Positions 6,526 to 21,330 of a stretch of DNA of 64,000 nt are shown piece by piece. Location of the stretch: positions 1-64,000 of the forward strand of contig JAECRT010000001.1 of NCBI GenBank assembly GCA_016000085.1, written 5' to 3'. The position numbers were made by a program, and so were the translations under genes. Under the pieces are notes generated by a model, which saw nothing but the letters and a program-made list of their open reading frames with translations, did not search any database and was not told the DNA's origin. Source of the DNA: Sphingomonadaceae bacterium (GTDB taxonomy: Bacteria > Pseudomonadota > Alphaproteobacteria > Sphingomonadales > Sphingomonadaceae). Positions within the stretch are counted from its first letter, which is position 1. Each line of letters starts with the position of its first letter.

Positions 6526-6578
6526 AAGGGTATCACTCTGTTTCGGGCTGATCAGGCCGAGACAGAGTGGTACCCCTT
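6526..6578. terminator. long hairpin, bidirectional terminator
   Basis: AAGGG-TATCACTCTGTTTCGG (6526-6546) pairs with CCGAGACAGAGTGG plus TACCCCTT (6557-6578). The stem is about 20 pairs with two G-U pairs and one bulge. It sits exactly between the convergent SDR and EthD genes and its right arm reaches the stop codon of the latter, so it probably stops transcription from both sides. Confidence 0.65.
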
Positions 6579-7297: not shown

Positions 7298-7323
7298 TTG
7301 CAGCTCTCCAGCAGCTTTATTTT

Positions 7324-8085
7324 TTAGTCGAAATTGGCTTGCCCGCCATCCAGCGGTACTGTCGCACCCGTCAGATAGCTGAGATCTGATCCACACAGCG
7401 CGACGATAGCGCGGCCTATATCCTCCTCCAGCCGACCGATGCGGCCCAGGGGGATCGTACGGAAAAATGCTTCGGCTTCCTCCGGATTATTTTCGAACCA
7501 CCATTTGAGACCCGGCGATTCAGCGTGAGGAGCGATGGTGAGGACGCGAATATTCTCTCCCCCCCATTCAGACGCGGCAGCGCGGGTCAGAGCACGAGTG
7601 GCCTGCTTGATCGCGCCGTAACAGCCATAGGCCGCCATGTCCCAGCGGATGCCCGCCGAGGACGCAAAGTTGAAGATGGTGCCGCCGCCGCGTTTCCCCA
7701 TGTGCGGATGGACCAGCTTCATCAAGCGGAAAGACGCGAGCGGGCCGGATTCAAACCCGGCGGTAAAAGCCTCGTCGGACACATCATCGATCAGGCCCAG
7801 CGGCACTTCCTGCGCGTTATTGACGAGGATATCGACGCCGCCCAGATCGCGTACTGCTACATCGACCGCGTTGGCGAGATCCGCGGCATCCTTGACATTG
7901 CAGGCGACAGGAATGGCGCGAACGCCGCGTTCCTCCGCCAGCCGGGCGGTCTGTTCCACCTTTTCGAGGGTGCGCCCTGCCAACAACAGATCAACGCCCT
8001 CGCTGGCGAACGCAAACGCGATTCCCTGACCAACGCCTTGCCCAGCCCCGGTAATCAGGGCAACCTTGCCTTTCAAAGCTGGCAT
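7324..8085 (-). CDS. short-chain dehydrogenase/reductase (SDR)
   Basis: This 253-residue SDR has TGAGQGVG near residue 14, a catalytic Ser in NFASSAG and the catalytic pair YGAIK near 158. The usual NNAG is NNAQ here, a tolerated variant. The segment LLLAGRT after the second strand, with an Arg, suggests NADP(H). It ends with VPLDGGQANFD. The ATG at 8085 has AAGGAAG upstream. It leads a two-gene operon with the EthD gene and is divergent from the KstD-like gene, with a TACGCA motif in the 171-base gap. The substrate is unknown; the tandem with KstD suggests a steroid-like alcohol or ketone. Confidence 0.9.
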   Translation of the reverse strand: MPALKGKVALITGAGQGVGQGIAFAFASEGVDLLLAGRTLEKVEQTARLAEERGVRAIPVACNVKDAADLANAVDVAVRDLGGVDILVNNAQEVPLGLIDDVSDEAFTAGFESGPLASFRLMKLVHPHMGKRGGGTIFNFASSAGIRWDMAAYGCYGAIKQATRALTRAAASEWGGENIRVLTIAPHAESPGLKWWFENNPEEAEAFFRTIPLGRIGRLEEDIGRAIVALCGSDLSYLTGATVPLDGGQANFD

Positions 8086-8134: not shown

Positions 8135-8256
8135 GCAAGTTGACTTTATGGCAAGTTGGACCGCATTCTGCGTGGATATAGCAGGGACGTTGGGCGATCA
8201 ATATGGCGCGCCTCTCTTCGATCCGTGCGGTGGGACAGGATTTGGAACGGACAAGC

Positions 8257-9945
8257 ATGAGCAATTGGGACAAGGAAGTCGATATCCTCGTGGTGGGGTC
8301 GGGCGCGGGCGGCATGTTGTCGGCGCTGGTGGGCGCGCATGACCGGGCCGATGTCCTGATCGTCGAAAAGGCGGAGCTGTGGGGCGGCACGTCGGCGACG
8401 TCCGGTGGTGGCATCTGGATTCCTGGCAGCGACCCGGCGAAAGCGGCGGGATTCGAGGATGATCTGGAAGACGCTTTCACCTATTTGCGCGCACTTTCGG
8501 CCGACAATGTGCCGGACGCGAATATCCGCGCCTATGTCGACAATAGTGCGCCCATGCTGCGCTGGGTCATGGCGAATACCCCGGTCGAATTCATGGCTTT
8601 CCCTTATCCCGACTACCATGCCGAAAATCCGGGGGGATCGGCGCGGGGATTCCGCACGCATTTGCCTCTGCCGCTTAACGGCAAGTCGCTGGGCGCGGAT
8701 ATCCGCAAGCTGCGCTTCGCGTCACCTGCGGCCAGCCTGTTCGGATATCTGAACTGGCATTTCAGTGAAACCTATGAACTGCTTTACCGGACCAAAGGGT
8801 GGATCAAGAATCTGGTCGTCAATATGGGGAAATATTGGTTGGACCTGCCATTCCGCCTGACCTCGCGCAAGGACCGGCGCCTGACGCTGGGGAACGCGCT
8901 CACGGGGGGATTGCGCATGGCTCTCAACCGCCAATCCGTACCACTATGGTTGGAAACACCGCTCAAGCAGCTAGTGCGCGAAGACGGTAAAGTAACGGGC
9001 GCAATCGTGGCAAAGGACGGCAAGCCCTATCGCATTGGCGTGCGTAAGGGCGTGGTGCTGGCGGCCGGCGGCTTTGACAAGAACCAGATGATGCGCGACG
9101 GCAATGCGCCGCTTTACCCCACCGCACAATATTCCGGTGGCGTCACCAGCAATACTGGCGACAGTATTCGCGCGGGCGAAGCGGTCGGCGCAGGGACGAT
9201 GAACATGCAGTCGGCCTGGGCCGCGCCGGTTTTCTATGTGCCGGGTGAAGATCGCGGACGGCTTTGCACGGTCGAACGCGCGCTGCCCGGCTGCATCATG
9301 GTGAACCAGCGGGGCGAACGCTACCTAAACGAGGCTGCGTCTTATCACATAGTGGGCCAGCAGATGGCGCGGCGTCAGTCCGAACATGGCGATGCATCGC
9401 CAAGCTGGATGATCTTCGACCATGAATATCGGCATAAATTCCCTATGGGGCCGCTTTACCCGCTGATGCCCACCTTCCTGCACAACAGTGCGGTACGCGG
9501 GATATTGAAGCAGGGACGCTCCATCGAGGAACTCGCGAAGAATATCGGCATGGAACCGGCATCGCTCTCGGCCACGATCGCCCGTTTCAATACTCATGCC
9601 GCAAAAGGCGAAGACCCGGAGTTCCATCGGGGGGATGCGGCCTATGACAAAATGTATGGCGATCCTCGTCATGGTCCCAACCCGTGCCTGCGCCCGTTGG
9701 ACAAGGGGCCATATTATGCGATGCCGATCTATCCTGGTGACATCGGGACGAATGGCGGGCTGTTGACTAATGCCAATGCGCAGGTCGTCGATCAGGACGG
9801 CAAGGCCATCCCTGGACTTTATGCGGTAGGGAACAATTCCGCGTCGCCGATGGGGGAAAGCTATCCGGGCGCGGGCGTGACGCTGGGGCCCGCGATGACC
9901 TTTGGTTATGTCGCAGCCCGGCACATGACCGGGGGCAATGCCTGA
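8257..9945 (+). CDS. KstD-like FAD-dependent 3-ketosteroid dehydrogenase family protein
   Basis: This 562-residue flavoprotein of the fumarate-reductase/KstD family would introduce a double bond next to a ring ketone, as 3-ketosteroid delta-1- or delta-4-dehydrogenases do. The FAD motif GSGAGG is at residues 14-19, followed by EKAELWGGTSATSGGGIW. The C-terminal block runs PYYAMPIYPGDIGTNGG and ends with ESYPGAGVTLGPAMTFGY, close to the KstD signature. Tyr486 or Tyr487 is a candidate catalytic residue. The ATG at 8257 has GGAACGG six bases upstream; an ATG at 8203 would add 18 residues before the Rossmann fold. Regioselectivity cannot be told. The gene is divergent from an SDR operon. Confidence 0.87.
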   Translation: MSNWDKEVDILVVGSGAGGMLSALVGAHDRADVLIVEKAELWGGTSATSGGGIWIPGSDPAKAAGFEDDLEDAFTYLRALSADNVPDANIRAYVDNSAPMLRWVMANTPVEFMAFPYPDYHAENPGGSARGFRTHLPLPLNGKSLGADIRKLRFASPAASLFGYLNWHFSETYELLYRTKGWIKNLVVNMGKYWLDLPFRLTSRKDRRLTLGNALTGGLRMALNRQSVPLWLETPLKQLVREDGKVTGAIVAKDGKPYRIGVRKGVVLAAGGFDKNQMMRDGNAPLYPTAQYSGGVTSNTGDSIRAGEAVGAGTMNMQSAWAAPVFYVPGEDRGRLCTVERALPGCIMVNQRGERYLNEAASYHIVGQQMARRQSEHGDASPSWMIFDHEYRHKFPMGPLYPLMPTFLHNSAVRGILKQGRSIEELAKNIGMEPASLSATIARFNTHAAKGEDPEFHRGDAAYDKMYGDPRHGPNPCLRPLDKGPYYAMPIYPGDIGTNGGLLTNANAQVVDQDGKAIPGLYAVGNNSASPMGESYPGAGVTLGPAMTFGYVAARHMTGGNA

Positions 9946-10070: not shown

Positions 10071-10835
10071 TCAGAATTGATCCGGTCGAAGAATCGCATC
10101 GCTGCCACCATCAATGAAGATGATCTGACCCAGCAAATAGTGATTTTCCATGCCCAGCAGGAAATCGATCAACTCGGCAATTTCCCCAGCCTGCGCATAG
10201 CCTTCGACTGCGATCGGGTTGCTCTGGTTGATGAGCTTTACCATGTCGGGCTGATCGAGCAGTGGCGTCGTCATCGGCGTGGTGACCACACCTGGCCCCA
10301 CACCGTTTAGCAATATTCCAGCACCTGCCCATTCGGATTTCGTGGCCGTCTGCCGCATCCAGCGCGCAAGAGCGTTTTTGGAGGTGGAATAGGAACCTTG
10401 CGGCTCGGCCGCCATGGCGTCGAGCGCGCCCTGCTCGTCCCCGGCGAGGCACAGATCCACAACTTTGCGCGTCGCGGGCAGGAAGGCGGCAGTGGAACAA
10501 ATGACCACGGCGCGCGGTCGTGATGACCGCACCATGAGTGGGCGTAAGCCTTCCAGAGTCGCTACCGCACCGAAATAATTGATCGCGATTGTTTCCCGCG
10601 GCAGATCGCCGTTCGAAATGCCCGCTCCGGCCAGCACCGCATCAATTCCGTCAGGGGCGAGACGAACGACTTCCGCGATCATATGGGCGCGACCAGCCTC
10701 GCTACCCAGGTCTGCTGCTATGTCCGCGTTGCGCAAATCAACGCCAATAACATGATGACCTGCTCCCTTCAGTCGCTCCATTGTAGCAGCACCAATCCCT
10801 GAAGCGGCGCCCGTCACGACGATAGTTCTGGTCAT
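10071..10835 (-). CDS. 3-alpha-hydroxysteroid dehydrogenase/carbonyl reductase-like SDR
   Basis: This 254-residue SDR resembles the Comamonas 3-alpha-HSD/carbonyl reductase, which interconverts 3-alpha-hydroxy and 3-keto steroids with NAD. Shared features are the TGAASGIG motif (8-15), GVDLRNADI after the second strand, an NYFGA helix in place of NNAG, Ser114, the pair Tyr149/Lys153 in YSTSK, and the C-terminus IDGGSDAILRPDQF, close to the DAVMRPTQF end I recall for that enzyme. The ATG at 10835 has AAGGGA upstream; a longer frame is possible but lacks this site. It is the last gene of the 11-gene operon, 26 bases after the SnoaL-like gene. Activity on steroids is inferred from family resemblance. 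Confidence 0.85.
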   Translation of the reverse strand: MTRTIVVTGAASGIGAATMERLKGAGHHVIGVDLRNADIAADLGSEAGRAHMIAEVVRLAPDGIDAVLAGAGISNGDLPRETIAINYFGAVATLEGLRPLMVRSSRPRAVVICSTAAFLPATRKVVDLCLAGDEQGALDAMAAEPQGSYSTSKNALARWMRQTATKSEWAGAGILLNGVGPGVVTTPMTTPLLDQPDMVKLINQSNPIAVEGYAQAGEIAELIDFLLGMENHYLLGQIIFIDGGSDAILRPDQF

Positions 10836-10861
10836 TTTAATTCCCTTTCGATTCAACTTGT

Positions 10862-11302
10862 TCAACCGAATACGTCCATTGATCCAACCAGTGCGCGATT
10901 ATGCTTGTGCCTGTGTGACATCCGCCAGCACCCGTCGATCCGGACCCACTGGTCGTGATAATCGCCCAATGAACGGAAATTCGGGTCCGATGCGTCATTG
11001 CGACCCAGGTGCATGTCGTTGACATAGCAGCGACTGCTTGCTCTATCTCCGTCAACCTCGACAATCAGATTACCAAGGAGATGCTGCGTCGTGCCGCAGG
11101 CGTCGAGATATTGGCGAATGAGGGCTATGATCGCCTCGCTTCCCATCAGGGGGCCAGTGCCTAGTTCGGCAGTCGCATCTTCAGTGAGGATGGCCTTCAC
11201 GGTCATCCAGTCGCGGTCATCCATGGCGCGGGCGAAGCGCGTCAGTTCTTGGCCGATCTGATGGTGGGCCAGCATGGCTTCAACGCTCATCGTCTGTTTC
11301 AT
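10862..11302 (-). CDS. SnoaL-like (NTF2-fold) protein
   Basis: This 146-residue NTF2-fold protein has the helix HHQIGQELTRFARAMDDRDW followed by a short strand, as in SnoaL_4 enzymes. The segment YLDACGTTQHLLGN with its central His is shared with the SnoaL half of the fusion protein at 27119-27934 (FLDTCGGTQHLIGS), so the two probably act on similar compounds. The start codon overlaps the stop of the previous gene (ATGA), so translation is coupled to the BaiE-like gene. The reaction is unknown; a dehydratase or isomerase role is inferred from the fold and the neighbours. Confidence 0.85.
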   Translation of the reverse strand: MKQTMSVEAMLAHHQIGQELTRFARAMDDRDWMTVKAILTEDATAELGTGPLMGSEAIIALIRQYLDACGTTQHLLGNLIVEVDGDRASSRCYVNDMHLGRNDASDPNFRSLGDYHDQWVRIDGCWRMSHRHKHNRALVGSMDVFG

Positions 11303-11745
11303 CCTTGCTCTACGCGCAACCGTGACAGGCGGATCGACGCAATTTTCCATTCGCCCGCGATCCTGCGATAGGTTTCATGATAATGTCCCCAACCGTGCAA
11401 CCAGCGAAACGGCAATGTCGAAGCCGCGTCAGGCCACAGCCAGTCTTCCATCGCCCAGATACCGCGCGCGTGATCGTCATCCTCAACATGGATTTCAGGC
11501 ATATGGCCGTGATGGACAGTGGCAATATGGGTCAGCATCGGCACCAACACTGCCAAATAAGGCTTCGCACCATGAATCAGCATGGTCTCCTGATGCTCCG
11601 GGGTTGCATCGCGGAAGTCGGCAATCAGATCCGGCGCGAACAATGCTTCCAACCCGGTCCAGTCCTTTGTATCCATGGTCCGGAAATAACGGGCCTTGAG
11701 TATCTCTATTTCGCGGATCGCGGTTGTTTGTGCGGCACCATCCAT
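11299..11745 (-). CDS. BaiE-like SnoaL protein, candidate hydroxysteroid dehydratase
   Basis: This 148-residue protein has the arrangement of BaiE, the bile-acid 7-alpha-dehydratase. The segment IEILKARYFRTMDTKDW places Tyr20 and Asp25 where BaiE has its catalytic Tyr30 and Asp35. The segment VHHGHMPEIHVED corresponds to BaiE's HMGHTPEI block holding a catalytic His. A C-terminal Arg-rich strand (IRLSRLRVEQ) may supply the last residue. BaiE-type enzymes remove a ring hydroxyl as water next to a dienone system. The match is to motif spacing recalled from memory and does not prove substrate. AAGGAG precedes the ATG, 15 bases after the lipocalin-like gene; the downstream gene overlaps by ATGA. 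Confidence 0.82.
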   Translation of the reverse strand: MDGAAQTTAIREIEILKARYFRTMDTKDWTGLEALFAPDLIADFRDATPEHQETMLIHGAKPYLAVLVPMLTHIATVHHGHMPEIHVEDDDHARGIWAMEDWLWPDAASTLPFRWLHGWGHYHETYRRIAGEWKIASIRLSRLRVEQG

Positions 11746-11760
11746 GGTCGAAACTCTCCT

Positions 11761-12192
11761 TCACGCGCGGCGCCATTCGAGACTGACAAGATCCTGACCA
11801 ACCTCTGCCTCCAGAAAAAGCCGATCGTCCTCGAAACGAAAACGGCGGGGCTGCTGCGAACCGATCCAGTCTGGATACCATGCGCCATCGACATCATGGG
11901 TGATAATGCTCGCCTCGGCATCGAGGCTCCAGGTGCCGAAATAGCCGTTATAGGCGCGTATAGCTTTGCCCAATGCGGCGTCCTCGACATCGTAGATGCT
12001 GGGCACACCAAGCGGGGGACGGTTCGCCATCATCAGATGACAGCTCATATGCCCGTCTGCGCTATACATGATCTGCCCGATCGCATCGTGGCCGAAGGGG
12101 AACTGCGCTGTCCCATCCGCACGCAGAGTGGTCCACAGTACCAGTTGCCAGGCGCCGATGAACTTTTCCGCGAGCGGTGAGTGCGCAACCAT
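11761..12192 (-). CDS. lipocalin-like domain protein
   Basis: This 143-residue protein begins with FIGAWQLVLW and continues with DGTAQFPFGHDAIGQIMYSA, DGHMSCHLM and GTWSLD. This pattern belongs to the lipocalin-like domain (Lipocalin_5 type), a small soluble beta-barrel of unknown function often found in catabolic clusters. No signal peptide is visible, so it should be cytoplasmic. It may bind a hydrophobic intermediate, but that is inference from the fold. It lies three bases after the stop of the upstream SDR (TAGGATATG), so it is part of the same transcript and probably translationally coupled. Confidence 0.8.
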   Translation of the reverse strand: MVAHSPLAEKFIGAWQLVLWTTLRADGTAQFPFGHDAIGQIMYSADGHMSCHLMMANRPPLGVPSIYDVEDAALGKAIRAYNGYFGTWSLDAEASIITHDVDGAWYPDWIGSQQPRRFRFEDDRLFLEAEVGQDLVSLEWRRA

Positions 12193-12195
12193 ATC

Positions 12196-12948
12196 CTATC
12201 CCGATACCGTGTAGCCGCCATCGACGGCCAACGTCTGGCCGGTAATCCATGCGGCGGCGGGACTGGTGAGAAACAGGATGGCGCCCGCAATATCTTCCGG
12301 CTCGCCCAGCCGCCCCAGCGGGGTGCGCGCCATTGTCGGGGCTGTCCACTCCTCCTGCGCGAAAGTGCCCGCCGTCATCCGGCTGCGGGTGATGCCCGCT
12401 GCTACAGCATTGACGCGGACATTGCGCGGTCCCCATTCCACCGCCAGCGTGCGGGTCAGGCCGACAAGACCGGTCTTGGCCGCGCCATAGCCTGGCACGA
12501 TCGGAATACCAAAAAAACTGCTCATCGAAGCAATGCTGATGACCGATGCGCCACCATCGATCTGGCTTTGCGCCAGCAGGTCGATCGTGCGTCGGGTCAT
12601 GCGGAAGGCGCCGACCAGCAGCATGTTGACCGCGCGGGCGAAAATATCCGGCTCATATTCGTCCAGGCCGAGGCTGGGCAGCGCTATGCCCGCATTGTTG
12701 ATGAGGATGTCGAGCCGGGGCAGGGCGGCGGCGGTTGCATCAATGCTCGCGCCATCCTCAATATCCATACGCAAATAGCGATAGTCGCTGAGATCCGTGT
12801 CATAATCAGCCGGGCTGCCCCGCGTGCCGGTGATGGTGACATCCGCACCAGCATCGCGATAGGCCGCTGCCGTCGCCGCACCAATACCGCTGGTGCCGCC
12901 CGTGACCAGCACATGCGCGCCGGAATAATCATGATGGATGCTGCTCAT
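12196..12948 (-). CDS. short-chain dehydrogenase/reductase (SDR)
   Basis: This 250-residue SDR shows TGGTSGIG near residue 16, INNAGIA near 84, a catalytic Ser in ISIASMSS, the pair YGAAK near 154, and VDGGYTVSG at the C-terminus. The segment ITGTRGS after the second strand has no acidic residue at the usual place, which suggests NADP(H). The spacing between the cofactor motif and NNAG is short because the linker is reduced (DLSDYRYLRMDIED). Its ATG overlaps the stop of the Gfo/Idh/MocA gene by four bases. Substrate unknown. Confidence 0.9.
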   Translation of the reverse strand: MSSIHHDYSGAHVLVTGGTSGIGAATAAAYRDAGADVTITGTRGSPADYDTDLSDYRYLRMDIEDGASIDATAAALPRLDILINNAGIALPSLGLDEYEPDIFARAVNMLLVGAFRMTRRTIDLLAQSQIDGGASVISIASMSSFFGIPIVPGYGAAKTGLVGLTRTLAVEWGPRNVRVNAVAAGITRSRMTAGTFAQEEWTAPTMARTPLGRLGEPEDIAGAILFLTSPAAAWITGQTLAVDGGYTVSG

Positions 12949-14072
12949 GGCTTTTCTACCTCAACCCATTGGCCTGTCGTGGCGGATTTTCGAGCGGCGT
13001 CGAGCACCGCCTGTCCGGCTGCGGCGTCGTGGAAATCACCCGCCGGATCGGGCAGGGGCGGAATGCGTCCTTCAATCTTCGCCTTCATCTGGCCGAACAG
13101 CTTTGTATAGGGCGCGACGTCGAAGCCCTTCGTGTGCCAGCGATCCATCTCGGTCTGGATCAACTCCTTGACGGCGAAAGGCTCGGGGAGGGGATTGATG
13201 AGTTCCTGCGGCATCGGTATCTGGCGTTCGCCGTCCGCATTCTTGATCCAAACTTCTTCGGGGTCCCCGAAGGCTGCGCCCGACTGTATCCAGGCGGCGC
13301 CCTTCGTCCCCGCAACCTTGGTCGCCATGACGAACGGGCCGGGGAAGGCCATTGCCGCCTCGATCACGCCGCGACAGCCGGTGTCGGTGACGAACTGGAC
13401 ATTATAATAGTCGTCTGAAGTCATGGCCGGGCGGCTGGTCGAAAGTTTACGCAGGATGGCGCTGACTGCCACGATTTCGCCCACCGTCGATCGCACCTGA
13501 TCAATCATGTGGGTGCCAAACGCGCCCAGAAAGCCGCCGCCCTGCGCGGCGTCGGTCCACCAGTCGGTCAGTGGCTCTTCTTCGCCACCGCCGGGCTGTT
13601 GGTAAATGCGGCTGAACATCAACGGGTCGCCAATCATTCCGTCTTTCACCAGCCGGCGCAACAGCGCCTGCGCGCTGTCATAACGAAACTCGGCGCCCAG
13701 CGCATGAACGACACCAGCCTTTTCCGCCGCCGCCAGCATTTCGCGGGCTTGGGGTAAATCTTTGGCAAAGGGCTTTTCGCACATCACCGCACGACCAGCC
13801 GCGATCGCTTGCATAACCGGTTGGTAATGGGCGTGGGGCGGGGTCGCGACCGTCACCAGTCGGATCGCGGGATCGTCAATCAGCACCTGCTCCAAACTGT
13901 CCGAGGCGACCGGGATGTCGAGCGGCGCGGCGCGCTGGGCCGTGCGTTCGCGGTCGCGGCCGACGATGGCGCGCACTTCGACCCCGGCCGCGCGCAGTGC
14001 GCGCACATGGGTGAACAGGCCAAACCCCGTTCCAACTACAACGGCACCAATGGGGTGCTCTTGCGTGCTCAT
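12945..14072 (-). CDS. Gfo/Idh/MocA-family oxidoreductase
   Basis: This 375-residue NAD(P)-dependent oxidoreductase has an N-terminal Rossmann fold (VVVGTGFGLFTH), the family motif CEKPFAKD near residue 98, and the C-terminal alpha/beta domain with a GTHMID block that carries the catalytic His. Members oxidise sugars, inositols and glycosides, often at C3, and some act on non-sugar rings. It sits between a TIM-barrel isomerase gene and an SDR, overlapping the latter by ATGA. Gfo/Idh plus TIM-barrel pairs are common in glycoside-processing operons, so a glycosylated or polyhydroxylated substrate is possible, but nothing in the sequence fixes it. Confidence 0.88.
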   Translation of the reverse strand: MSTQEHPIGAVVVGTGFGLFTHVRALRAAGVEVRAIVGRDRERTAQRAAPLDIPVASDSLEQVLIDDPAIRLVTVATPPHAHYQPVMQAIAAGRAVMCEKPFAKDLPQAREMLAAAEKAGVVHALGAEFRYDSAQALLRRLVKDGMIGDPLMFSRIYQQPGGGEEEPLTDWWTDAAQGGGFLGAFGTHMIDQVRSTVGEIVAVSAILRKLSTSRPAMTSDDYYNVQFVTDTGCRGVIEAAMAFPGPFVMATKVAGTKGAAWIQSGAAFGDPEEVWIKNADGERQIPMPQELINPLPEPFAVKELIQTEMDRWHTKGFDVAPYTKLFGQMKAKIEGRIPPLPDPAGDFHDAAAGQAVLDAARKSATTGQWVEVEKP

Positions 14073-14074
14073 GT

Positions 14075-14923
14075 TCAGTTCCTTGCCTGATTGATGATGG
14101 CGTGGGCCGCTCCTGCCCAGTCGTGGATGACGTCTGCCATCGGTTGGGAAGCGGTATTGGCCGAGAAAATCTCAACCGAAATCGGTGCGGTGCAGCCAGT
14201 CGCGTCCAGCGTGTGGAGGAAGCCGACAAGGTCGAGTTCCCCTTCGCCCGGTAGCAGGCGACCGTGCATGGTTTCGTGCAATAGGTCGTTACTGGGCAGC
14301 GCAGGCGCGTCGTTGATCTGGATGGTGTGGATGCAATGTCCCGGAATGGCGGCAAGCAAATCGAGCGACGACCCACTGCGGAAGAAATGCCAGCTATCCA
14401 GTGTCAGCCCGCCATTTGGCCTGCCCGCTGCCTGAATGATTGCCCATGCGGCTGCAAGGTCGGGGATGCCTCCAAAGGGGAGGAACTCGATATGCGCGTT
14501 CAGGCCATGGTTTGCCGCCAAATCGCAAAGATAGGCGAATGCCCCTGCAGCCTCGTCCAGCGAGGGGGCAACGCCCATCATCTCGACGGCCGTGACCGAC
14601 GGCGCGCCGATCCGTGCCGCCGTCTCGATCACCCGCTCCGGCGTTAATGAGCGGAGCAGGGCGGCCATGGGAATGGAATCGCTCGCGCTATGGTGAGAGG
14701 GGAGCCAGCAAGCCGTGCAGTCGATCTCCATGATAGCAAGGCCATGATCTTCGATCCGCGCGCGAATGTCGGCGGCTGTCATTCCTGCGGCTTCTAGCGA
14801 CCAGATATCGCCGGGCATCAGGGACAGGCCGCTGAACCCGGCGTCGCGTGTGGGAGCTAGCCGTTCGAGCAGCGGGACATGGATGAATGGCGGGCCGGAC
14901 AAGATCAGATCAGTAGAGAGCAT
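14075..14923 (-). CDS. sugar phosphate isomerase/epimerase-like TIM barrel
   Basis: This 282-residue protein belongs to the xylose-isomerase-like TIM barrels (AP_endonuc_2 family). Candidate metal ligands lie on successive strands: Glu in HIEFLPF, Asp/His in LTLDSWHFF, His in HTIQINDAP and Glu in ISVEIFS. Members isomerise or epimerise sugars and related ketones using a divalent metal. It is two bases before the Gfo/Idh/MocA gene and its ATG overlaps the VOC stop by one base (TGATG). A second member of the family ends the operon at 54753-55592. Substrate unknown. Confidence 0.85.
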   Translation of the reverse strand: MLSTDLILSGPPFIHVPLLERLAPTRDAGFSGLSLMPGDIWSLEAAGMTAADIRARIEDHGLAIMEIDCTACWLPSHHSASDSIPMAALLRSLTPERVIETAARIGAPSVTAVEMMGVAPSLDEAAGAFAYLCDLAANHGLNAHIEFLPFGGIPDLAAAWAIIQAAGRPNGGLTLDSWHFFRSGSSLDLLAAIPGHCIHTIQINDAPALPSNDLLHETMHGRLLPGEGELDLVGFLHTLDATGCTAPISVEIFSANTASQPMADVIHDWAGAAHAIINQARN

Positions 14924-15336
14924 CAGCGGACATCCCTATGAAAATTAAGCTCAAGGAGGACTCCGTTTACCTCTGTCACGAAGAGTTGGATCAGGCCGGC
15001 ATCGGGATAATCCTTGCGCGTGACAGGTCGGCCGGTGGCCTCCAGGCGGTGGAGCATGTCAGCCAGATCGTCACATTCCAGTGCGACATGGTGCACGGCG
15101 CCGCTGCCGCGCGTAGCAGTGAAGGGCAGCATTTCGTCACTGGGATAACGGGCGCCGACCGGGCCGATATGGATGATCGGATGGCCGGCCGGATCGTGAA
15201 CCCAGCAGCCCTTGTCGATATCGCCCGCTCCCGGTGCGACGCGGGCTTCCAGTCCCAATATATCGCGGAAGAAGGCGACAGTGCCGGGTACATCGGGGGT
15301 GCGGATATTGATGTGATCGAGCGCGCGGACGGCCAT
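14923..15336 (-). CDS. VOC-family (glyoxalase/bleomycin-resistance fold) protein
   Basis: This 137-residue protein has the two beta-alpha-beta-beta-beta halves of the vicinal oxygen chelate fold: ALDHINIRTPDV with FFRDILGLE, and AVHHVALECDDL ending in VLLELNFHRD. His in DHINI, His in HHVAL and Glu in LLELN are the likely metal ligands. VOC enzymes include glyoxalases, epimerases and extradiol dioxygenases; this size fits an isomerase or lyase more than a dioxygenase. I placed the start at the ATG at 15336, four bases after the DUF1214 stop; an upstream ATG at 15351 would overlap it. Substrate unknown. Confidence 0.85.
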   Translation of the reverse strand: MAVRALDHINIRTPDVPGTVAFFRDILGLEARVAPGAGDIDKGCWVHDPAGHPIIHIGPVGARYPSDEMLPFTATRGSGAVHHVALECDDLADMLHRLEATGRPVTRKDYPDAGLIQLFVTEVNGVLLELNFHRDVR

Positions 15337-15340
15337 GGCG

Positions 15341-16573
15341 TTAATCCACAAACTGACCGGTGTTTATCACCTTGGCGGGATCGAGTGCCACGGCGCCATC
15401 CCGTTCCAGATTTTCGAGCGGTAGGCGCCAAAGCTGAACTGGCGGTGTTGTCTGTGTCTGGACGAAGCGCAGACCCCACTGGCCCTTGTCATGCCCGAAA
15501 CTGTTGACCCAGTTGCCGCCTGCGCCGGGATCACGCTCTGCGACGACGATGCGCACGCGACCGTCCGGTTCGGCTATAAAGCGGCTGTTGTTGACCCAGC
15601 CATTGCCGTCCTCGAACGTGTCGAGATTTTCCTGCCAGATGTTGCAGATCTGGAAGTTCCAATATTCACAGGGAGGCGGCGTGAATTCCAGCACCAGCGC
15701 TTCATCATGTCCCTTTTCCCAGCCGCCAAATGCGACATGGCGATCGGGTACGCCACCGTTTGAGAGATATTGGGCGCGGCTATAGTCCAGCCGGTTGAGC
15801 TTGGCGGAAAAATTGCCCTGATTGCCCTGCCACCAGTTTCGGACCAGTTCGGCATAGCCCAGCACGCCCTGCCCCGCCCAGGCGAGGTTGTTCGCCATCA
15901 ACGCAGGGGTGATGGGTTCGGGCGCTGCCCCGTCCATCCGTTCAATGGTCATGGCGGGAGCAGTCTGGGTGGCGCGATCGCTCCAGACGAAGCGGATAAG
16001 GATGCAGTTCGTGTCGGGGGAAAGCTTGAGCCAGTTTTTGCCTGGCCCGAGGTCGTTTTGCGACAGGACGATCTCAAACGTCCCGTCATCAGCGATGATA
16101 AGCTGCTGGCTGGCAAGGAAACCGGTGGTCTTCAGATTGGAAGGATCGAACTGCGCGAGACCTTCCTGTCCTAGTGAGGCCCAGTCCTGCGCACCCGGAT
16201 CGGCAGGTGCGGGCGCGGTCAGCACCGCCATCACGAAATAGGGAATGGTGCCGCGCGTACCGGTGATGCGATAATCCCGAGCCTCATCGAACTGGCACAT
16301 CAGATGATCCTGATCGACGGTTTGGAAATTGATCGACTGTCTCCAGACCATGTCACGTAGCCGAGGGCGCGTGGGTTCTGCATTTTCAACCAGCCGCTCA
16401 AAGCTGGATCGGGTAAGGCGCGTCAAGAAGCGATACCATTCGGCGCGATCCAGATCGGATGGCTGATCGCCAAACTGTTCGATCATACGGCCGGCAACTT
16501 TCAGCGTATCGCAGAAATCATCCCATGCCGCGCCGGAAAGCAGGCGCTGTGCGGCCCTGTTTTCTGCGTTCAT
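15341..16573 (-). CDS. DUF1214-domain protein
   Basis: This 410-residue protein has no assigned reaction. It carries the DUF1214-type C-terminal block CEYWNFQICNIWQENLD, followed by RIVVAERDPGAGGNW. A paralogue at 42046-43137 has the matching segments CRFWNFQIDNWWMESMD and VVVCADRDPGFGNW. Both start with an alpha-helical region (AWDDFCDTLKVAGRMI; TWRDFCDQLALAGEIL) and share DYRITGTRGTIPYF-like text. No signal peptide is visible. The ATG at 16573 has AGGAG seven bases upstream, inside the end of the sulfotransferase gene; only one base separates the genes. The family is found beside steroid and hydrocarbon catabolism genes, but its role is not known to me. Confidence 0.85.
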   Translation of the reverse strand: MNAENRAAQRLLSGAAWDDFCDTLKVAGRMIEQFGDQPSDLDRAEWYRFLTRLTRSSFERLVENAEPTRPRLRDMVWRQSINFQTVDQDHLMCQFDEARDYRITGTRGTIPYFVMAVLTAPAPADPGAQDWASLGQEGLAQFDPSNLKTTGFLASQQLIIADDGTFEIVLSQNDLGPGKNWLKLSPDTNCILIRFVWSDRATQTAPAMTIERMDGAAPEPITPALMANNLAWAGQGVLGYAELVRNWWQGNQGNFSAKLNRLDYSRAQYLSNGGVPDRHVAFGGWEKGHDEALVLEFTPPPCEYWNFQICNIWQENLDTFEDGNGWVNNSRFIAEPDGRVRIVVAERDPGAGGNWVNSFGHDKGQWGLRFVQTQTTPPVQLWRLPLENLERDGAVALDPAKVINTGQFVD

Positions 16574-16574
16574 T

Positions 16575-17834
16575 TCAATTCTCCTGAATGACGGGAAATC
16601 GATTGTAATAAAATGCAAAACGCTCCCGCAGCGCAGCTATGTCGACGCCAAAAACGCCCTCCAGATCATAGAGTATGCGGCCCTGCGCATGGCGCGGATT
16701 TTCGTCGAGATAACCGAGCAATGCGCGCTCGGCCTCCGGCGTCAACGGCAGGCCAGCCAGATCATAGACGCGCCGCATCATACCTTCCTGGTCGGCCATA
16801 TAGTCGTGGAAAAATATATCGAGCGACTGGTCCGGTCCCCACAGATCCCGCTGGTCGATGCAGGCGCGCAGCAGTCGCTCGATCCGTACGATCCAATGTT
16901 TTGCTAGGCCCGGCGGATCTGTAGGGTCGCGGCGAATGCGGTCGGAATAGCCGAGCATGGTGGTAAGTGAGCGCAGCACCGCCACCGGGTCACGATGACT
17001 GATAACCAGCGTAGCGTCGGGGAAAGCCGCCTTAAGCGCCCCCAGATTTTCCATATGCTGCGGAGATTTCAATATCCAGCGATTTGGCCCCCGGAACCAG
17101 GTCAGCACCTGCAGAACCTTCTTTTCATAAAGATAGCTTTGGGTGCGATCATGCGCGAAATAATGATCGATCCAGCGCGGCAGACGTGTCTGGAATTCCC
17201 AGCTGTAGCAGTTCAAATCCATGTAAAGCAGCTCATTATCCTCATGGATAGAACTGGCTTCCATGCCGTGCATTGCCGCCATGTGCGGCAGCATGGATTC
17301 GAAATGACCCCAGAATTCCGCGCTGCGGACCGCGCGCGGGTCAGCTTCCCCCGGTGCGAGAGGGCGCGCACTGGGTACGGGTTCTTCCGATTCCCAGAGG
17401 GTAAGCGAGCGCAGTCGTTCATCGCGCGCCAGCCAGTTGACGAGATGGGTCGTACCCGATCGCGGCAGCCCGGCGATGATGAGCGGCTTTTCAATCTGGA
17501 TGTCGAGGATTTCCGGATGGCGCTTTACTAGATCCTCGATCCGCAGCCGGTTTGCCATCACGCGGATGGCATGGTCGATGACGGTGATGCGCCCGCCGCG
17601 CGTCAGCCCTTCGTCCTCCGCCAGCGATTGCAGCACGACGGCCAACCGTTCGCGAAAGCCTGTATCTTCGCCAAAATCGCTCAGGCCGCCAGTCAGGGCG
17701 CTGGCGCGGGCAAGTATCTCTTCGACGCCCATATTTTCATCGAAATCCACCGGACCCTGGCGCGCGGCGATAATGTCGGGCGTGAGGCGCGGCTGCGCCA
17801 GATCGTCGATGATGATGTCCTGTGGTGCGCTCAT
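16575..17834 (-). CDS. sulfotransferase family protein (PAPS-binding)
   Basis: This 419-residue protein has the 5'-phosphosulfate-binding loop GLPRSGTTH at residues 122-130 and the 3'-phosphate-binding segment VISHRDPVAVLRS further on, as in PAPS-dependent sulfotransferases. Such enzymes move a sulfo group onto a hydroxyl. The first 115 residues form a helical N-terminal region seen in long bacterial members. It is the second gene of the operon, overlapping the alcohol dehydrogenase stop by ATGA. A sulfotransferase in a degradation operon is unexpected: it might activate a hydroxyl for elimination, detoxify an intermediate, or have another function. A second one lies at 19993-21168. Confidence 0.88.
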   Translation of the reverse strand: MSAPQDIIIDDLAQPRLTPDIIAARQGPVDFDENMGVEEILARASALTGGLSDFGEDTGFRERLAVVLQSLAEDEGLTRGGRITVIDHAIRVMANRLRIEDLVKRHPEILDIQIEKPLIIAGLPRSGTTHLVNWLARDERLRSLTLWESEEPVPSARPLAPGEADPRAVRSAEFWGHFESMLPHMAAMHGMEASSIHEDNELLYMDLNCYSWEFQTRLPRWIDHYFAHDRTQSYLYEKKVLQVLTWFRGPNRWILKSPQHMENLGALKAAFPDATLVISHRDPVAVLRSLTTMLGYSDRIRRDPTDPPGLAKHWIVRIERLLRACIDQRDLWGPDQSLDIFFHDYMADQEGMMRRVYDLAGLPLTPEAERALLGYLDENPRHAQGRILYDLEGVFGVDIAALRERFAFYYNRFPVIQEN

Positions 17835-18877
17835 GCGGCTTCCTTTGCAAATGTCAGCATGACCTTCGCCGAACGATCCGAATCCGCCGCAACGGATAGC
17901 GCCGCATGGAAGTCGCTGAAAAAATCGAATTGGTGACTGATGAGCGGCGTCAGGTCGTGCTTCCCTGTCGCGATCATGGCCAGCGCCTCGCCAAATTCGG
18001 CGGCGCGGTCGTCGGCGATCGAACCGCTCATCTGGATTTCATTCGCCATCATCCGCCAGAGGTCGATGGGAACCGGCTTTTTGTAGAGCGCGATAATAGC
18101 GATACGGGCGCGATATTTGGCGATACCAAAGGCTTCGGTGAGCGCAGCGGACGCCCCGGCACAATCGACAAAAACGTCGGTGCCGACCGTGGGCGCACCG
18201 AACCGATCGCCGCCGCCATGAAAGCGGGTCAGCGCCTTCGTCATGGATTCCATGTCTATATTGCAGGCAAGAGCTGCGCCAAGGGCACGGGCGCGCTCCA
18301 ACCGACTATCCACACGATCGAATATGGCGATGTCGGTCACGCCTAGGTGACGCAACATGGCGACGGTGCAAAGCCCGATCGGACCGGCGCCCAATATCGC
18401 GACTTTGTCGGTCGGCCGGACTTGCATGATCTTTAACGCGTGCAGACCGACGGACAGCGGCTCAGCCAGCGCCGCCTGAGCGAAGCTGACATGGTCAGCC
18501 AAGGGGAAAAGGGTTGCGCCAATGCGTGCGCCGCTGACCCGGATGAAAGGCGCCATCGCGCCATCCGGTCCGCCGCCCCCTATAAAGCCATGGTCCGGAT
18601 TGACGGCGACCCGCATGCCGACGGCCAGCCCTTCCACTCCGGGGCCAGTGGCGGCAATGATGCCGGCAAATTCATGGCCGATGGGCAGCGGATCTTGCAA
18701 TGGTTCCACACCACCCAGGCTGCCCTGCGCGATATAGCCAAGGTCACTGCCGCAAATGCCGCAGGCTGCTACCCGCACCAGCACTTCGCCTGCTGCGACT
18801 TGAGGTATGGCAATGGAATCCAGACGGACATCGCCCGGGCCGTGCACGCGCGCCAGCTGCATCATGCCGCTTTTCAT
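17831..18877 (-). CDS. zinc-type alcohol dehydrogenase (MDR family)
   Basis: This 348-residue medium-chain dehydrogenase would oxidise a secondary alcohol with NAD(P). The catalytic zinc site is visible as CGICGSD (Cys42) and GHE at 67-69, and the Rossmann motif is GAGPIG with FDRVDSR after it. The structural zinc loop with four Cys is missing: the region reads NPDHGFIGGGGPDG. That is a real departure from sorbitol/threonine dehydrogenase types and may affect oligomerisation. GGGAGAG precedes the ATG. This is the first gene of the 11-gene operon, 99 bases from the divergent AraC regulator, which probably controls it. Confidence 0.9.
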   Translation of the reverse strand: MKSGMMQLARVHGPGDVRLDSIAIPQVAAGEVLVRVAACGICGSDLGYIAQGSLGGVEPLQDPLPIGHEFAGIIAATGPGVEGLAVGMRVAVNPDHGFIGGGGPDGAMAPFIRVSGARIGATLFPLADHVSFAQAALAEPLSVGLHALKIMQVRPTDKVAILGAGPIGLCTVAMLRHLGVTDIAIFDRVDSRLERARALGAALACNIDMESMTKALTRFHGGGDRFGAPTVGTDVFVDCAGASAALTEAFGIAKYRARIAIIALYKKPVPIDLWRMMANEIQMSGSIADDRAAEFGEALAMIATGKHDLTPLISHQFDFFSDFHAALSVAADSDRSAKVMLTFAKEAA

Positions 18878-18976: not shown

Positions 18977-19861
18977 ATGAAAAATGTTTCGATAGCCAAG
19001 CGATCGTCGCACGAGCTCGCAGACCGCCCCTGGGCGGTGCTGGCGCGAGCTGATAGCGCCACTGCGCGGGTGGAACTGCGCCGCTATGAACTGCCGAGTC
19101 CCAATGAAATGTGGGAGCTGGACGATGCGCCCATCCTGTCGATCGTGATGCCCCGCGCGGAAGGAACGCAGGGCGAAATCATGTTCGACCTCGGCGACCG
19201 GCAACGGCACAAGGTTGGCCGTCTGATGTTACGGCCCGGCGGGATCGCCATGCATTCGCGCGGTGATGGCGGGGTGCTCGACATATTGACCTGCCGCTTC
19301 GATCCAGTGCGATTTGCGGCTGCGACCGGACTGTCTGAATGGGACAACCGACGGCTTAGCCGTTGCGCGGCAATCTCTGCACCGACTGTCATGGCTTTGG
19401 CGGATCGGCTGAAGCAGGAGACGATCTCGCCCGACTTTGGGTCGGACATGGCAATTGACGCGTTGATTCAGCTTCTGATGGTGGAACTGGGGCGCATTTT
19501 CCGTCCCGTGCGGCAGTTTGATACAGGTCAGGGGGGGCTTGCCCCATGGCAATTGGCGCGTATCGAGGAAGTGTTGCGCGCCAGCGACGGGGAATGGCCA
19601 ACGACGGAAGCACTGGCCCGGCTGTGCGGCATCAGCCGTTCGCATCTGTCACGATCCTTCGCCGCAACTATGGGTACATCCCTGTCCGGTCACGCCACGG
19701 CCATTCGCCTTGAAAGAGCGCAGGATATGATCCGCGCCGGCGCGTTACCGATGAATCTGATCGCGCGGGTTTTGGGCTTCGCGACCGCCAGCGCCTTTAG
19801 CGCGACCTTTCGCCGCGCCACGGGCCTGACGCCACGCCAATTCCGGAATGGGTTTCACTGA
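18977..19861 (+). CDS. AraC-family transcriptional regulator
   Basis: This 294-residue protein has a C-terminal double helix-turn-helix: ALARLCGISRSHLSRSFAA, then NLIARVLGFATASAFSATF and the end FRRATGLTPRQFRN. The N-terminal 170 residues form a sensor region without a recognisable ligand motif. The start is uncertain: the frame is open further upstream, but that part overlaps the divergent dehydrogenase gene. The ATG at 18977 leaves a normal 99-base divergent promoter, although its ribosome-binding site is weak. Its position makes it the likely activator of the operon 10071-18877. Whether it also reads the TACGCA motifs elsewhere is unknown; that motif is not in this intergenic gap. Confidence 0.88.
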   Translation: MKNVSIAKRSSHELADRPWAVLARADSATARVELRRYELPSPNEMWELDDAPILSIVMPRAEGTQGEIMFDLGDRQRHKVGRLMLRPGGIAMHSRGDGGVLDILTCRFDPVRFAAATGLSEWDNRRLSRCAAISAPTVMALADRLKQETISPDFGSDMAIDALIQLLMVELGRIFRPVRQFDTGQGGLAPWQLARIEEVLRASDGEWPTTEALARLCGISRSHLSRSFAATMGTSLSGHATAIRLERAQDMIRAGALPMNLIARVLGFATASAFSATFRRATGLTPRQFRNGFH

Positions 19862-19992: not shown

Positions 19993-21168
19993 TCAGAGGA
20001 TATAGCGTTCGCGATAGGTGGCAAATGCGCGCTTGATTGCCTCTTCGTCCAACCCGAAGCGTTCCATTGAATAATCGTGCATGGGCCGCTGTTCGCGTTT
20101 GTTGCCGGCAAGGAACTCGTTCAGCGCTTCTTCCAGCCGGTCATCGACGGGGATGCCGATGCGGGAAAGGACACGCCGCGCCTGCGTCATTGGATCCCTT
20201 CCAACTTCGCGATAGTCGATGTCAATGAAGCGCTGCTCGCCTATCCGCGCGCGCGCAGCTTCGAACAGGCCCATCCATTCGACAAGGCGCTGGAACCAAT
20301 ATTCGCCCACCTGGCTGTCGGTCACCGACGCGCTCAGCTTATAAAGCGCCGCCTGCATGGAGATATAGGAAGGCACGGTCTGCAACGGATCGCGATGCGT
20401 CATGATCAGCAGCGCGTCGGGAAAGGCGTTGGCCGCGAGCTCGGCATAGGGCAAGTTGGACGGACTCTTGAGGATCCATTTGGTGCCGCGACGCGATGGA
20501 TCCTGCCACTGGAGATATTGGAGGATGGTCTTGAGATCCTCATGCCCCCTGGACTGGTCATAGCCATTGAGCCAGCGGGTGAAGCTGGGGACGAAATTCA
20601 TGCCCTCTACCATGGTGCTGACGAACATCTGGCCGAGCACCAGGATTTCCTCGTCTGGCGCATCGGGTTCGAGCGGGTGGATGGAGGCGAGTTCGGGCGC
20701 GAGTTGTAGCCAACCGTCGATCATCGCCTGTGCATAGGCGCGGCGTTCGACCGGGTTGCCACGTTCCTCGCCGGGAAAGGGCGCGAAATTCTGTGCTTCA
20801 TACCATCGCAGGCCGGTCATGCCGGGCGCGCTGGCCAATAGCCGCTGGAAAATCGTGCTGCCGGTGCGCGGCAGGCCAAGGATAATGCCCGCCACCTCGA
20901 CCTTTTCGTCTAATATTTCGGGATGCCGCTTGATGTCGTCGATCATTCGCAGGCGGCTGACAAGTCCCTTGACGATGACTTCGGTGGTAGAATCATGGCC
21001 CGCTGGGGTTAGCCGACCTTCACTGTTCGATGCTTCCAGATAATGATCCATAGGCTCGATGAACCAGAGATCTCCAAAATCTTCTAGGCCCGCCCGAATC
21101 CGCGCCTGTTGCAGCAACGCCTCGCGATCCAGCGCTTGCGCGTCAATAATTTCGGACAAAGGCGTCAT
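19993..21168 (-). CDS. sulfotransferase family protein (PAPS-binding)
   Basis: This 391-residue protein has the phosphosulfate loop GLPRTGST at residues 98-105 and the second PAPS segment LIMTHRDPLQTV. The intervening SPSNLPYAELAANAFPDA matches long bacterial sulfotransferases and parallels SPQHMENLGALKAAFPDA in the operon enzyme at 16575-17834, so the two are distant paralogues. I used the ATG at 21168; a GTG at 21177 lies too close to the purine-rich ribosome-binding site. It stands alone, divergent from the TonB-receptor gene, with a TACGCA-type motif (21331) in its leader. The acceptor is unknown. Confidence 0.87.
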   Translation of the reverse strand: MTPLSEIIDAQALDREALLQQARIRAGLEDFGDLWFIEPMDHYLEASNSEGRLTPAGHDSTTEVIVKGLVSRLRMIDDIKRHPEILDEKVEVAGIILGLPRTGSTIFQRLLASAPGMTGLRWYEAQNFAPFPGEERGNPVERRAYAQAMIDGWLQLAPELASIHPLEPDAPDEEILVLGQMFVSTMVEGMNFVPSFTRWLNGYDQSRGHEDLKTILQYLQWQDPSRRGTKWILKSPSNLPYAELAANAFPDALLIMTHRDPLQTVPSYISMQAALYKLSASVTDSQVGEYWFQRLVEWMGLFEAARARIGEQRFIDIDYREVGRDPMTQARRVLSRIGIPVDDRLEEALNEFLAGNKREQRPMHDYSMERFGLDEEAIKRAFATYRERYIL

Positions 21169-21330
21169 ATATATCACTCTCTTCAGGCCGGATGGATGAT
21201 TACAATCAGCAGCGCTATGGGATCGTTGACCGGTAGGAAGTCGCTCCCATACGTCTCTTTCCTCAATTCACCATTGCTGGACAAAATGGCGGTCGCCCAT
21301 AATTCTGCGGAGGGCAGTCGCTATAGTAGT

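What the first reader, a model, noticed from the sequence alone, without database searches (positions are those of the whole stretch)
10071..18877. An 11-gene operon whose combination of families I do not recognise
Eleven minus-strand genes, all overlapping or within 30 bases, encode an alcohol dehydrogenase, a sulfotransferase, DUF1214, VOC, a TIM-barrel isomerase, Gfo/Idh/MocA, an SDR, a lipocalin-like protein, a BaiE-like protein, a SnoaL-like protein and a 3-alpha-HSD-like SDR. An AraC regulator faces them. Gfo/Idh plus TIM-barrel genes suggest sugar or glycoside chemistry; BaiE-like and HSD-like genes suggest steroid chemistry. Both would fit a steroid glycoside or a polyhydroxylated steroid. 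The tight coupling implies one pathway segment. This is the best candidate here for an undescribed system.
Basis: partly seen in the sequence, partly recalled or inferred. Interest (0 to 1): 0.72.

Follow-up and report, generated by a model that had tools for sequence, protein, structure and literature searches.

The report
Steroid-catabolism operon built around a sulfotransferase
This is a tightly packed set of genes, most of it shared by many steroid-eating bacteria, whose core pairs a sulfate-attaching enzyme with a protein of unknown function, which suggests that these bacteria attach sulfate to steroids while eating them, a step not described in the breakdown routes looked at here.

Summary
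The eleven minus-strand genes exist as described, coupled by overlaps or gaps of at most 15 bp. They are not one unit. A core, ADH–sulfotransferase–DUF1214-like–(VOC)–TIM-barrel–Gfo/Idh–SDR, recurs across Sphingomonadaceae and, in reduced form, in Pseudomonas and Haliea; the last four genes are rare add-ons. Of 249 family genomes, 19 carry the DUF ortholog, and all 19 also match the steroid 9,10-seco monooxygenase HsaA (19 of the other 230 do). Carriers include reported cholate degraders (Chol11, S. herbicidovorans MH, N. aromaticivorans), Sphingobium from tomatine-treated soil, and species named for estrone. The window's contig also holds KstD, KshA and HsaA/HsaC genes. The sulfotransferase's nearest solved relatives are mycobacterial STF9 and STF1 (Rv3529c), and a Tsukamurella plasmid carries a DUF–SDR–sulfotransferase trio. 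PAPS-synthesis genes (cysD–cysNC) or a cysQ-like gene lie beside it in four proteobacterial lineages (one showing the DUF gene only) and that plasmid, but not in most loci. I propose a PAPS-dependent sulfonation step in steroid catabolism, probably activating a hydroxyl for removal. Sulfonation is inferred from genomics; its purpose is speculative. Nothing is shown experimentally.

The parts
17831..18877 (-). Zn-dependent alcohol/polyol-type dehydrogenase (ADH), first gene, core
   Evidence: Pfam ADH_N/ADH_zinc_N; detected in 28 of 65 DUF-bearing loci
16575..17834 (-). PAPS-type sulfotransferase (Sulfotransfer_3), core
   Evidence: Pfam E 2e-34; invariant GLPRSGTTHLVN and HRDP..V..S..TM in 15 aligned rows; nearest folds STF9 and STF1; 44 of 65 loci
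15341..16618 (-). Divergent DUF1214-like protein, likely start 16573, core
   Evidence: 16-row alignment with many invariant polar residues; fold match 6ans and weaker VPA0106/VPA0735
14923..15351 (-). VOC-fold protein, optional core member
   Evidence: Pfam Glyoxalase; 9 of 65 loci
14075..14923 (-). Xylose-isomerase-like TIM barrel, core
   Evidence: Pfam AP_endonuc_2; PDB relatives Lmo2234 and IolI; 30 of 65 loci
12945..14072 (-). Gfo/Idh/MocA oxidoreductase, core
   Evidence: Pfam; 63-82% identical to 13 aligned homologs; 36 of 65 loci
12196..12948 (-). SDR oxidoreductase, core
   Evidence: Pfam adh_short_C2; 43 of 65 loci
11761..12192 (-). Lipocalin_5-like protein, add-on
   Evidence: Pfam E 3.5e-32; 2 of 65 loci
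11299..11745 (-). BaiE-like SnoaL_4 protein (possible hydroxysteroid dehydratase), add-on
   Evidence: Pfam; PDB 4l8o BaiE E 4e-13; 2 of 65 loci
10862..11350 (-). Second SnoaL_4 protein, add-on
   Evidence: Pfam; only PDB hit Rv3472, E 3e-6; 2 of 65 loci
10071..10865 (-). 3-alpha-hydroxysteroid-dehydrogenase-like SDR, add-on
   Evidence: PDB 1fjh E 6e-38; 3 of 65 loci, one of them (L095) a remnant of two short pieces
18977..19861 (+). Divergent AraC-family regulator (start inferred)
   Evidence: HTH_18 E 3e-19; copy of at least 45% identity in 4 of 65 loci
19993..21177 (-). Second sulfotransferase next to the operon
   Evidence: Sulfotransfer_3 E 1.4e-37; 76-85% identical copies near the module in L031 (same genome as L052), L032, L033, L051, L098
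8203..9945 (+). 3-ketosteroid dehydrogenase (KstD)-type flavoprotein, neighbour
   Evidence: NCBIfam 3-ketosteroid-delta-1-dehydrogenase E 2e-152, 508 against a cut-off of 789 bits; 84-86% identical in the genomes of L054 (Chol11), L095 and L051

Best explanation
The operon is a steroid-catabolism segment whose conserved centre is a PAPS-dependent sulfonation. The sulfotransferase puts a sulfate on a hydroxyl of a steroid or of a steroid-derived ring intermediate. ADH, SDR and Gfo/Idh adjust alcohol/ketone state on neighbouring carbons, and TIM-barrel, VOC and the DUF1214-like protein carry out isomerisation or elimination, with the sulfate most plausibly serving as a leaving group that removes an unreactive hydroxyl. 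In this strain the last genes (BaiE-like dehydratase, 3-alpha-HSD-like SDR) add steps for 3- and 7-hydroxylated steroids. Shown by computation: the conserved core, the restriction of the DUF ortholog to HsaA-bearing genomes in the sampled family, PAPS genes next to it in several lineages, homology to Stf1. Inferred: that sulfonation occurs. Speculative: the role of the sulfate and the order of steps.
For: Core gene order in many loci. DUF orthologs (at least 45% identity) in 19 of 249 family genomes; all 19 match HsaA at E<=1e-60 against 19 of 230 others, Fisher p 2.6e-18; by genus 14 of 14 against 9 of 82, p 3.4e-11. 10 of 10 named carriers tested have HsaA homologs at E<=1e-108 (at least two of them, L052 and L073, are also among the 249). 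HsaA, HsaC, HsaB-like, CoA-transferase-subunit and thiolase genes at contig 70-84 kb; KstD and KshA in the window. Carriers Chol11, S. herbicidovorans MH and N. aromaticivorans are reported cholate degraders (PMC8399759 passages). PAPS link: cysD-cysNC beside the module in Pseudomonas sp. Root71; cysD-cysNC-cysQ in a Sphingomonadales MAG; a cysQ-like gene directly after DUF in Sphingomonas lycopersici and two relatives; cysNC fragment plus cysQ-like gene before DUF in an Erythrobacteraceae MAG; cysD-cysNC beside the DUF-SDR-sulfotransferase trio in Tsukamurella. The own contig carries cysD-cysNC-cysQ at 118-122 kb. Fold matches to STF1/STF9 and, weakly, to curacin sulfotransferase and retinol dehydratase, which by recall use sulfonation for elimination.
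Against: 59 of 65 related loci show no PAPS gene in reach, and in the own genome (83% complete) the cys cluster lies about 100 kb away and holds the only cysD found. The cysQ assignments are below the curated cut-off (108-110 against 228.8 bits; one of three scanned has no hit at E<=1e-30). In the Erythrobacteraceae MAG (L103) the short contig shows the DUF but no sulfotransferase. Many carriers are relatives, so the p-values overstate; at most seven candidates per genome were scored. 21 of 65 DUF loci show no sulfotransferase nearby (some are short contigs), so the pair can part. Caenibius tardaugens, named with the other cholate degraders, is not among the 79 named loci; whether its genome lacks the core was not tested. 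Six papers on steroid, bile-salt or saponin degradation whose main text I searched do not contain the word sulfotransferase. Known steroid pathways are described as complete without sulfonation (recalled).
Confidence: 0.55

Rival explanations
1. Steroid glycoside catabolism: Gfo/Idh and TIM barrel oxidise and cleave a sugar on the steroid, as in 3-keto-glycoside routes.
For: Gfo/Idh plus TIM-barrel pairing; distant matches include levoglucosan and inositol dehydrogenases and DgpA; Tom-series Sphingobium, from a set of isolates of tomatine-treated soil, carry the core (paper passages); a GH3 gene lies at contig 153-155 kb.
Against: No curated sugar-dehydrogenase cut-off reached; no glycoside hydrolase domain in the operon; carriers include cholate degraders, whose substrate has no sugar; the GH3 gene is over 130 kb away.
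Confidence: 0.1
2. Sulfonation is protective: the cell tags toxic steroid intermediates with sulfate to keep them soluble or export them, and arylsulfatases later release them.
For: Sulfotransferase with PAPS genes; two arylsulfatases beside the split module in TomTYG65.
Against: Tight coupling to several oxidoreductase/isomerase genes fits a reaction sequence better; arylsulfatases are listed in only one of four plasmid regions read (TomTYG65, not TomMM7A, N. aromaticivorans or S. herbicidovorans; that gene table is incomplete).
Confidence: 0.2
3. The module degrades a non-steroid co-substrate (a terpenoid or lignan) that steroid degraders also use.
For: N. aromaticivorans, Pseudomonas and Haliea use many substrates (recalled); Gfo, TIM and VOC families are functionally broad.
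Against: 19 of 19 co-occurrence with HsaA; neighbouring KstD, KshA, BaiE-like and 3-alpha-HSD-like genes.
Confidence: 0.15

Closest known systems
Mycobacterial Rv3531c-Rv3530c-Rv3529c genes (hypothetical protein, possible oxidoreductase, sulfotransferase Stf1) of the cholesterol/KstR region
   Same: Stf1 (2zq5) is, with STF9, one of the two nearest solved structures of the operon's sulfotransferase; the same order of hypothetical/DUF, SDR, sulfotransferase is seen in Tsukamurella; KstR motif between Rv3531c and Rv3532, bound by KstR (PMC1995591 passages)
   Different: No ADH, VOC, TIM barrel or Gfo/Idh is listed near the Tsukamurella trio; homology of Rv3530c and Rv3531c to the window proteins was not tested here
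Bile-salt degradation clusters of Sphingobium sp. Chol11 and relatives (hsh2, hsh3, scd4AB, kstD)
   Same: Chol11 carries core genes in two loci (L054, L098); the window KstD has an 84% identical copy there
   Different: The two Chol11 papers whose main text I searched do not contain the word sulfotransferase
Gfo/Idh plus TIM-barrel sugar and cyclitol systems (IolG/IolE, levoglucosan, DgpABC; named partly from recall)
   Same: Oxidise-then-eliminate pairing of the same superfamilies (the chemistry is recalled)
   Different: Curated cut-offs not met; steroid context; sulfotransferase present
Sulfotransferase-driven eliminations: curacin sulfotransferase, retinol dehydratase (chemistry by recall)
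   Same: Sulfotransferase fold, matched by the model
   Different: Low TM-scores, 12-14% identity; no elimination shown here

Membership tests
PAPS-dependent sulfotransferase | Sulfotransfer_3 domain above cut-off | tested here: met
   120.2 against 27 bits
PAPS-dependent sulfotransferase | Conserved 5'-phosphosulfate loop and 3'-phosphate motif (motifs recalled) | tested here: met
   Invariant GLPRSGTTHLVN and HRDP..V..S..TM in 15 rows
PAPS-dependent sulfotransferase | Transfers sulfate from PAPS | not testable with these tools
   Only indirect: cys genes nearby in a minority of loci
DUF1214 family | Pfam PF06742 match | tested here: not met
   No PF06742 hit at E<=0.001 or E<=1; a 35% identical window paralog passes the cut-off; RefSeq calls an ortholog DUF1214 domain-containing
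Rv3529c-Rv3531c-type trio | Sulfotransferase homologous to Stf1 | tested here: met
   Profile E 7.7e-53 to 2zq5, titled STF1; Rv3529c = Stf1 in a PMC8882603 passage
Rv3529c-Rv3531c-type trio | Adjacent SDR and DUF homologous to Rv3530c and Rv3531c | tested here: inconclusive
   Homologous trio in Tsukamurella (sulfotransferase E 8e-33, SDR 4e-18, DUF 2e-26); the tuberculosis proteins were not compared
Levoglucosan/inositol/glycoside dehydrogenases | Curated NCBIfam cut-off | tested here: not met
   Best 104.5 against 650 bits
BaiE-type 7-alpha-dehydratase | Sequence homology to BaiE | tested here: met
   E 4.2e-13; catalytic residues not checked
3-alpha-HSD/carbonyl reductase | Sequence homology to the solved enzyme | tested here: met
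   E 6.2e-38
Steroid catabolic gene cluster | Linked KstD, KshA, HsaA, HsaC genes | tested here: met
   KstD, HsaA and HsaC score below the strict NCBIfam cut-offs, KshA_C is above Pfam's

The most novel reading that the evidence does not exclude
A sulfation-activated route exists in bacterial steroid catabolism: a Stf1-type sulfotransferase makes a hydroxyl into a sulfate leaving group, and the DUF1214-like protein with its SDR removes it, a chemistry shared from Sphingomonadaceae to Mycobacteriales and giving functions to Rv3529c-type trios.
Probability: 0.25. Interest if true: 0.85.

Novelty: new variant of a known kind. Interest (0 to 1): 0.6.

Why it matters
No aerobic steroid pathway that I know of uses sulfonation as a catabolic step. 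If this module does, it explains why sulfotransferase-SDR-DUF sets sit among steroid genes in unrelated bacteria, gives a first function to a DUF1214-like family, and may bear on an unexplained gene trio in the cholesterol region of Mycobacterium. It is directly testable in harmless strains that carry the same core.

Tried and rejected
Sugar reading: rejected as main explanation (no glycoside hydrolase domain in the operon). One conserved 11-gene unit: rejected; ten of the eleven genes recur in Sphingobium estronivorans AXB (L095), where the eleventh survives only as two short pieces, and elsewhere the add-ons are rare. 'The PAPS cluster on the own contig proves the link': rejected; it holds the only cysD found in the genome, although its cysQ-like protein is 66% identical to the operon-borne one of S. 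lycopersici while a second own copy is 36%. Spread to actinobacteria by genome sampling: at E<=1e-30 only 1 of 246 genomes matched, the centre itself, so the actinobacterial link rests on one plasmid and Stf1; a Prescottella plasmid hit has no such trio in its gene table. Literature searches for the pair: DUF1214 with sulfotransferase, 0 papers; sulfotransferase with steroid-degrading, 4 papers, none on this by title; broader searches showed nothing on it in the titles listed (in one search, 20 of 870). The key Chol11 proteome paper (PMC8432579) is not held, so earlier notice of these proteins cannot be excluded. The identity thresholds were my own choice.
Full report
Observation. One search lists all eleven ORFs on the minus strand between 18877 and 10071; one search gives their spacing (overlaps, or gaps of 2, 3 and 15 bp). 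Pfam confirms the families except for the third gene, which has no Pfam hit at E<=0.001 and only a DUF6194 hit at E 0.067 when the limit is raised to 1. That gene is nevertheless a distant DUF1214 relative: a second window protein at 42046-43137, 35% identical to it, passes the DUF1214 cut-off, and the AlphaFold model (mean pLDDT 85.7) matches 6ans, an uncharacterised Burkholderia protein, and more weakly VPA0106 and VPA0735.

Conservation. A search of 249 family genomes with the third protein found matches at E<=1e-20 in 26; 19 hold an ortholog of at least 45% identity (at most seven candidates per genome were scored). I fetched 20 of the 21 such places outside the own genome (G093:C81 was left out) and compared all eleven proteins and eight neighbours. 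ADH, sulfotransferase, DUF, TIM barrel, Gfo/Idh and SDR recur with small changes of order; VOC is optional; two second copies (L048, L049) and L050 lack most of the set. A scan of named genomes found 106 relatives and kept 79 distinct loci. With three plasmid regions added, 65 of 82 loci hold a DUF of at least 45% identity; of these 65, sulfotransferase is found in 44, SDR in 43, Gfo/Idh in 36, TIM barrel in 30, ADH in 28, VOC in 9, and the add-ons lipocalin, first SnoaL, second SnoaL and last SDR in 2, 2, 2 and 3 (thresholds mine, some loci are short contigs). The whole set is best matched in Sphingobium estronivorans AXB (L095), where ten genes recur at 73-90% identity and the last SDR survives as two short pieces. 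In Chol11, S. herbicidovorans MH and two Tom strains the sulfotransferase and ADH lie a few kb away on the other strand.

Steroid context. Carriers include Croceicoccus estronivorus, Sphingobium estronivorans and Novosphingobium sp. Chol11, S. herbicidovorans MH and N. aromaticivorans DSM 12444. A review states that Chol11, S. herbicidovorans MH, N. aromaticivorans F199 and C. tardaugens begin cholate degradation by the delta-4,6 variant (PMC8399759, passages; that F199 is DSM 12444 is recalled). C. tardaugens is not among the 79 named loci; whether it lacks the core was not tested. Eleven plasmids of Tom-series Sphingobium carry the DUF at 80.6-82.3% identity; the two inspected, TomMM7A and TomTYG65, carry the core as a split module. 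The tomatine paper (PMC10653915; abstract, outline and passages) describes RC1 and 14 isolates from tomatine-treated soil, names TomTYG65 but not TomMM7A in its main text, and does not use the word sulfotransferase there. All 19 DUF-bearing family genomes also match HsaA at E<=1e-60, against 19 of 230 without it; at E<=1e-100 the figures are 18 of 19 and 14 of 230. One carrier, G093, has only a weak HsaA (33% identity). Genera were counted by hand: 14 of 14 against 9 of 82. On the own contig, HsaC, HsaA, an HsaB-like reductase, a CoA-transferase subunit, thiolase and acetaldehyde dehydrogenase genes lie at 70-84 kb, with KshA at 30692-31771 and KstD at 8203-9945 in the window. HsaA, HsaC and KstD score below the strict NCBIfam cut-offs.

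Sulfonation. The sulfotransferase family keeps both expected cofactor motifs (motifs recalled). The best solved relatives by profile are 2z6v and 2zq5 (E 8.5e-56 and 7.7e-53), titled STF9 of M. avium and STF1 of M. tuberculosis; a paper passage equates Stf1 with Rv3529c (PMC8882603). Rv3529c to Rv3531c appear in a gene table of a paper on cholesterol-catabolism genes (PMC6429209, passages), and a KstR motif with positive binding lies at Rv3531c/Rv3532 (PMC1995591, passages). In a Tsukamurella plasmid the order DUF, SDR, sulfotransferase is contiguous and faces cysD and cysNC, with one regulator gene between; its proteins match the window's at 28%, 29% and 28% identity. CysD, CysNC or CysQ homologs lie within 6 of the 65 loci and 0 of the 17 loci with weaker or no DUF match. 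Three of the six (L082, L086, L100) are close relatives (cysQ-like proteins 98-100% identical), so four lineages are independent; in one of them (L103) the short contig shows the DUF but no sulfotransferase. In the three relatives the cysQ-like gene begins within about 6 bp of the end of the DUF match. In Root71 cysD faces the module and is one of three cysD copies. CysD and CysNC pass curated cut-offs where scanned; the CysQ proteins do not (108-110 against 228.8 bits, and one of three had no hit at E<=1e-30). By my rough estimate (65 loci, 1.16 Mb; two to three cys loci in about 4 Mb, assumed) about one locus or fewer would be expected by chance. In 59 of 65 loci there is none, so linkage is a minority pattern.

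Mechanism. Gfo/Idh and xylose-isomerase-like TIM barrels pair elsewhere to oxidise an alcohol and eliminate a neighbouring group (IolG/IolE logic, recalled). With a sulfotransferase and PAPS genes, the simplest joint reading is that a hydroxyl that cannot leave by itself is sulfonated, an adjacent alcohol is oxidised, and sulfate leaves. The DUF protein, with many invariant polar residues, is the candidate for acting on the sulfated compound. The BaiE-like and 3-alpha-HSD-like add-ons point to 3-alpha,7-alpha-hydroxysteroids such as bile salts in this strain. Which hydroxyl is sulfonated, and whether on the intact steroid or a ring fragment, is unknown.

Novelty. The gene families and the steroid-cluster setting are known; the conserved core and its PAPS link were not found in the searched library, with the caveat that the most relevant proteome paper was not held. 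I rate it a new variant of a known kind.

Noticed in passing
window 30692-31771 +: KshA-type Rieske oxygenase (KshA_C, E 1.1e-59), a steroid 9-alpha-hydroxylase candidate.
   Followed up: partly
window 42046-43137 +: DUF1214 paralog, 35% identical to the operon's third protein.
   Followed up: partly
window 6578-7396 -: EthD-domain protein beside an SDR and KstD; a Chol11 7-beta-hydroxysteroid dehydratase (Hsh3) has an EthD domain (PMC12175502 passages), and EthD relatives lie near the module in L075, L082, L086, L100, L108.
   Followed up: partly
own contig C31:118482-122088 -: cysD-cysNC-cysQ cluster with the only cysD found in the genome, on the steroid contig; its cysQ-like protein resembles the operon-borne one of S. 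lycopersici.
   Followed up: partly
own contig C31:147203-155256 +: Amidohydrolase/PD40 protein, an 804-aa protein without Pfam hit at E<=1e-5, and a GH3 enzyme downstream of a TonB receptor.
   Followed up: no
L144 14965-16229: In S. herbicidovorans MH the DUF gene is annotated as two adjacent CDS, a frameshift or sequence error.
   Followed up: no
L132 4066-8735: Two arylsulfatase genes beside the split module in TomTYG65, not listed in the TomMM7A region.
   Followed up: no
L106, L071: DUF orthologs in MAGs labelled Klebsiella pneumoniae and Spirochaeta, probably mislabelled bins.
   Followed up: no
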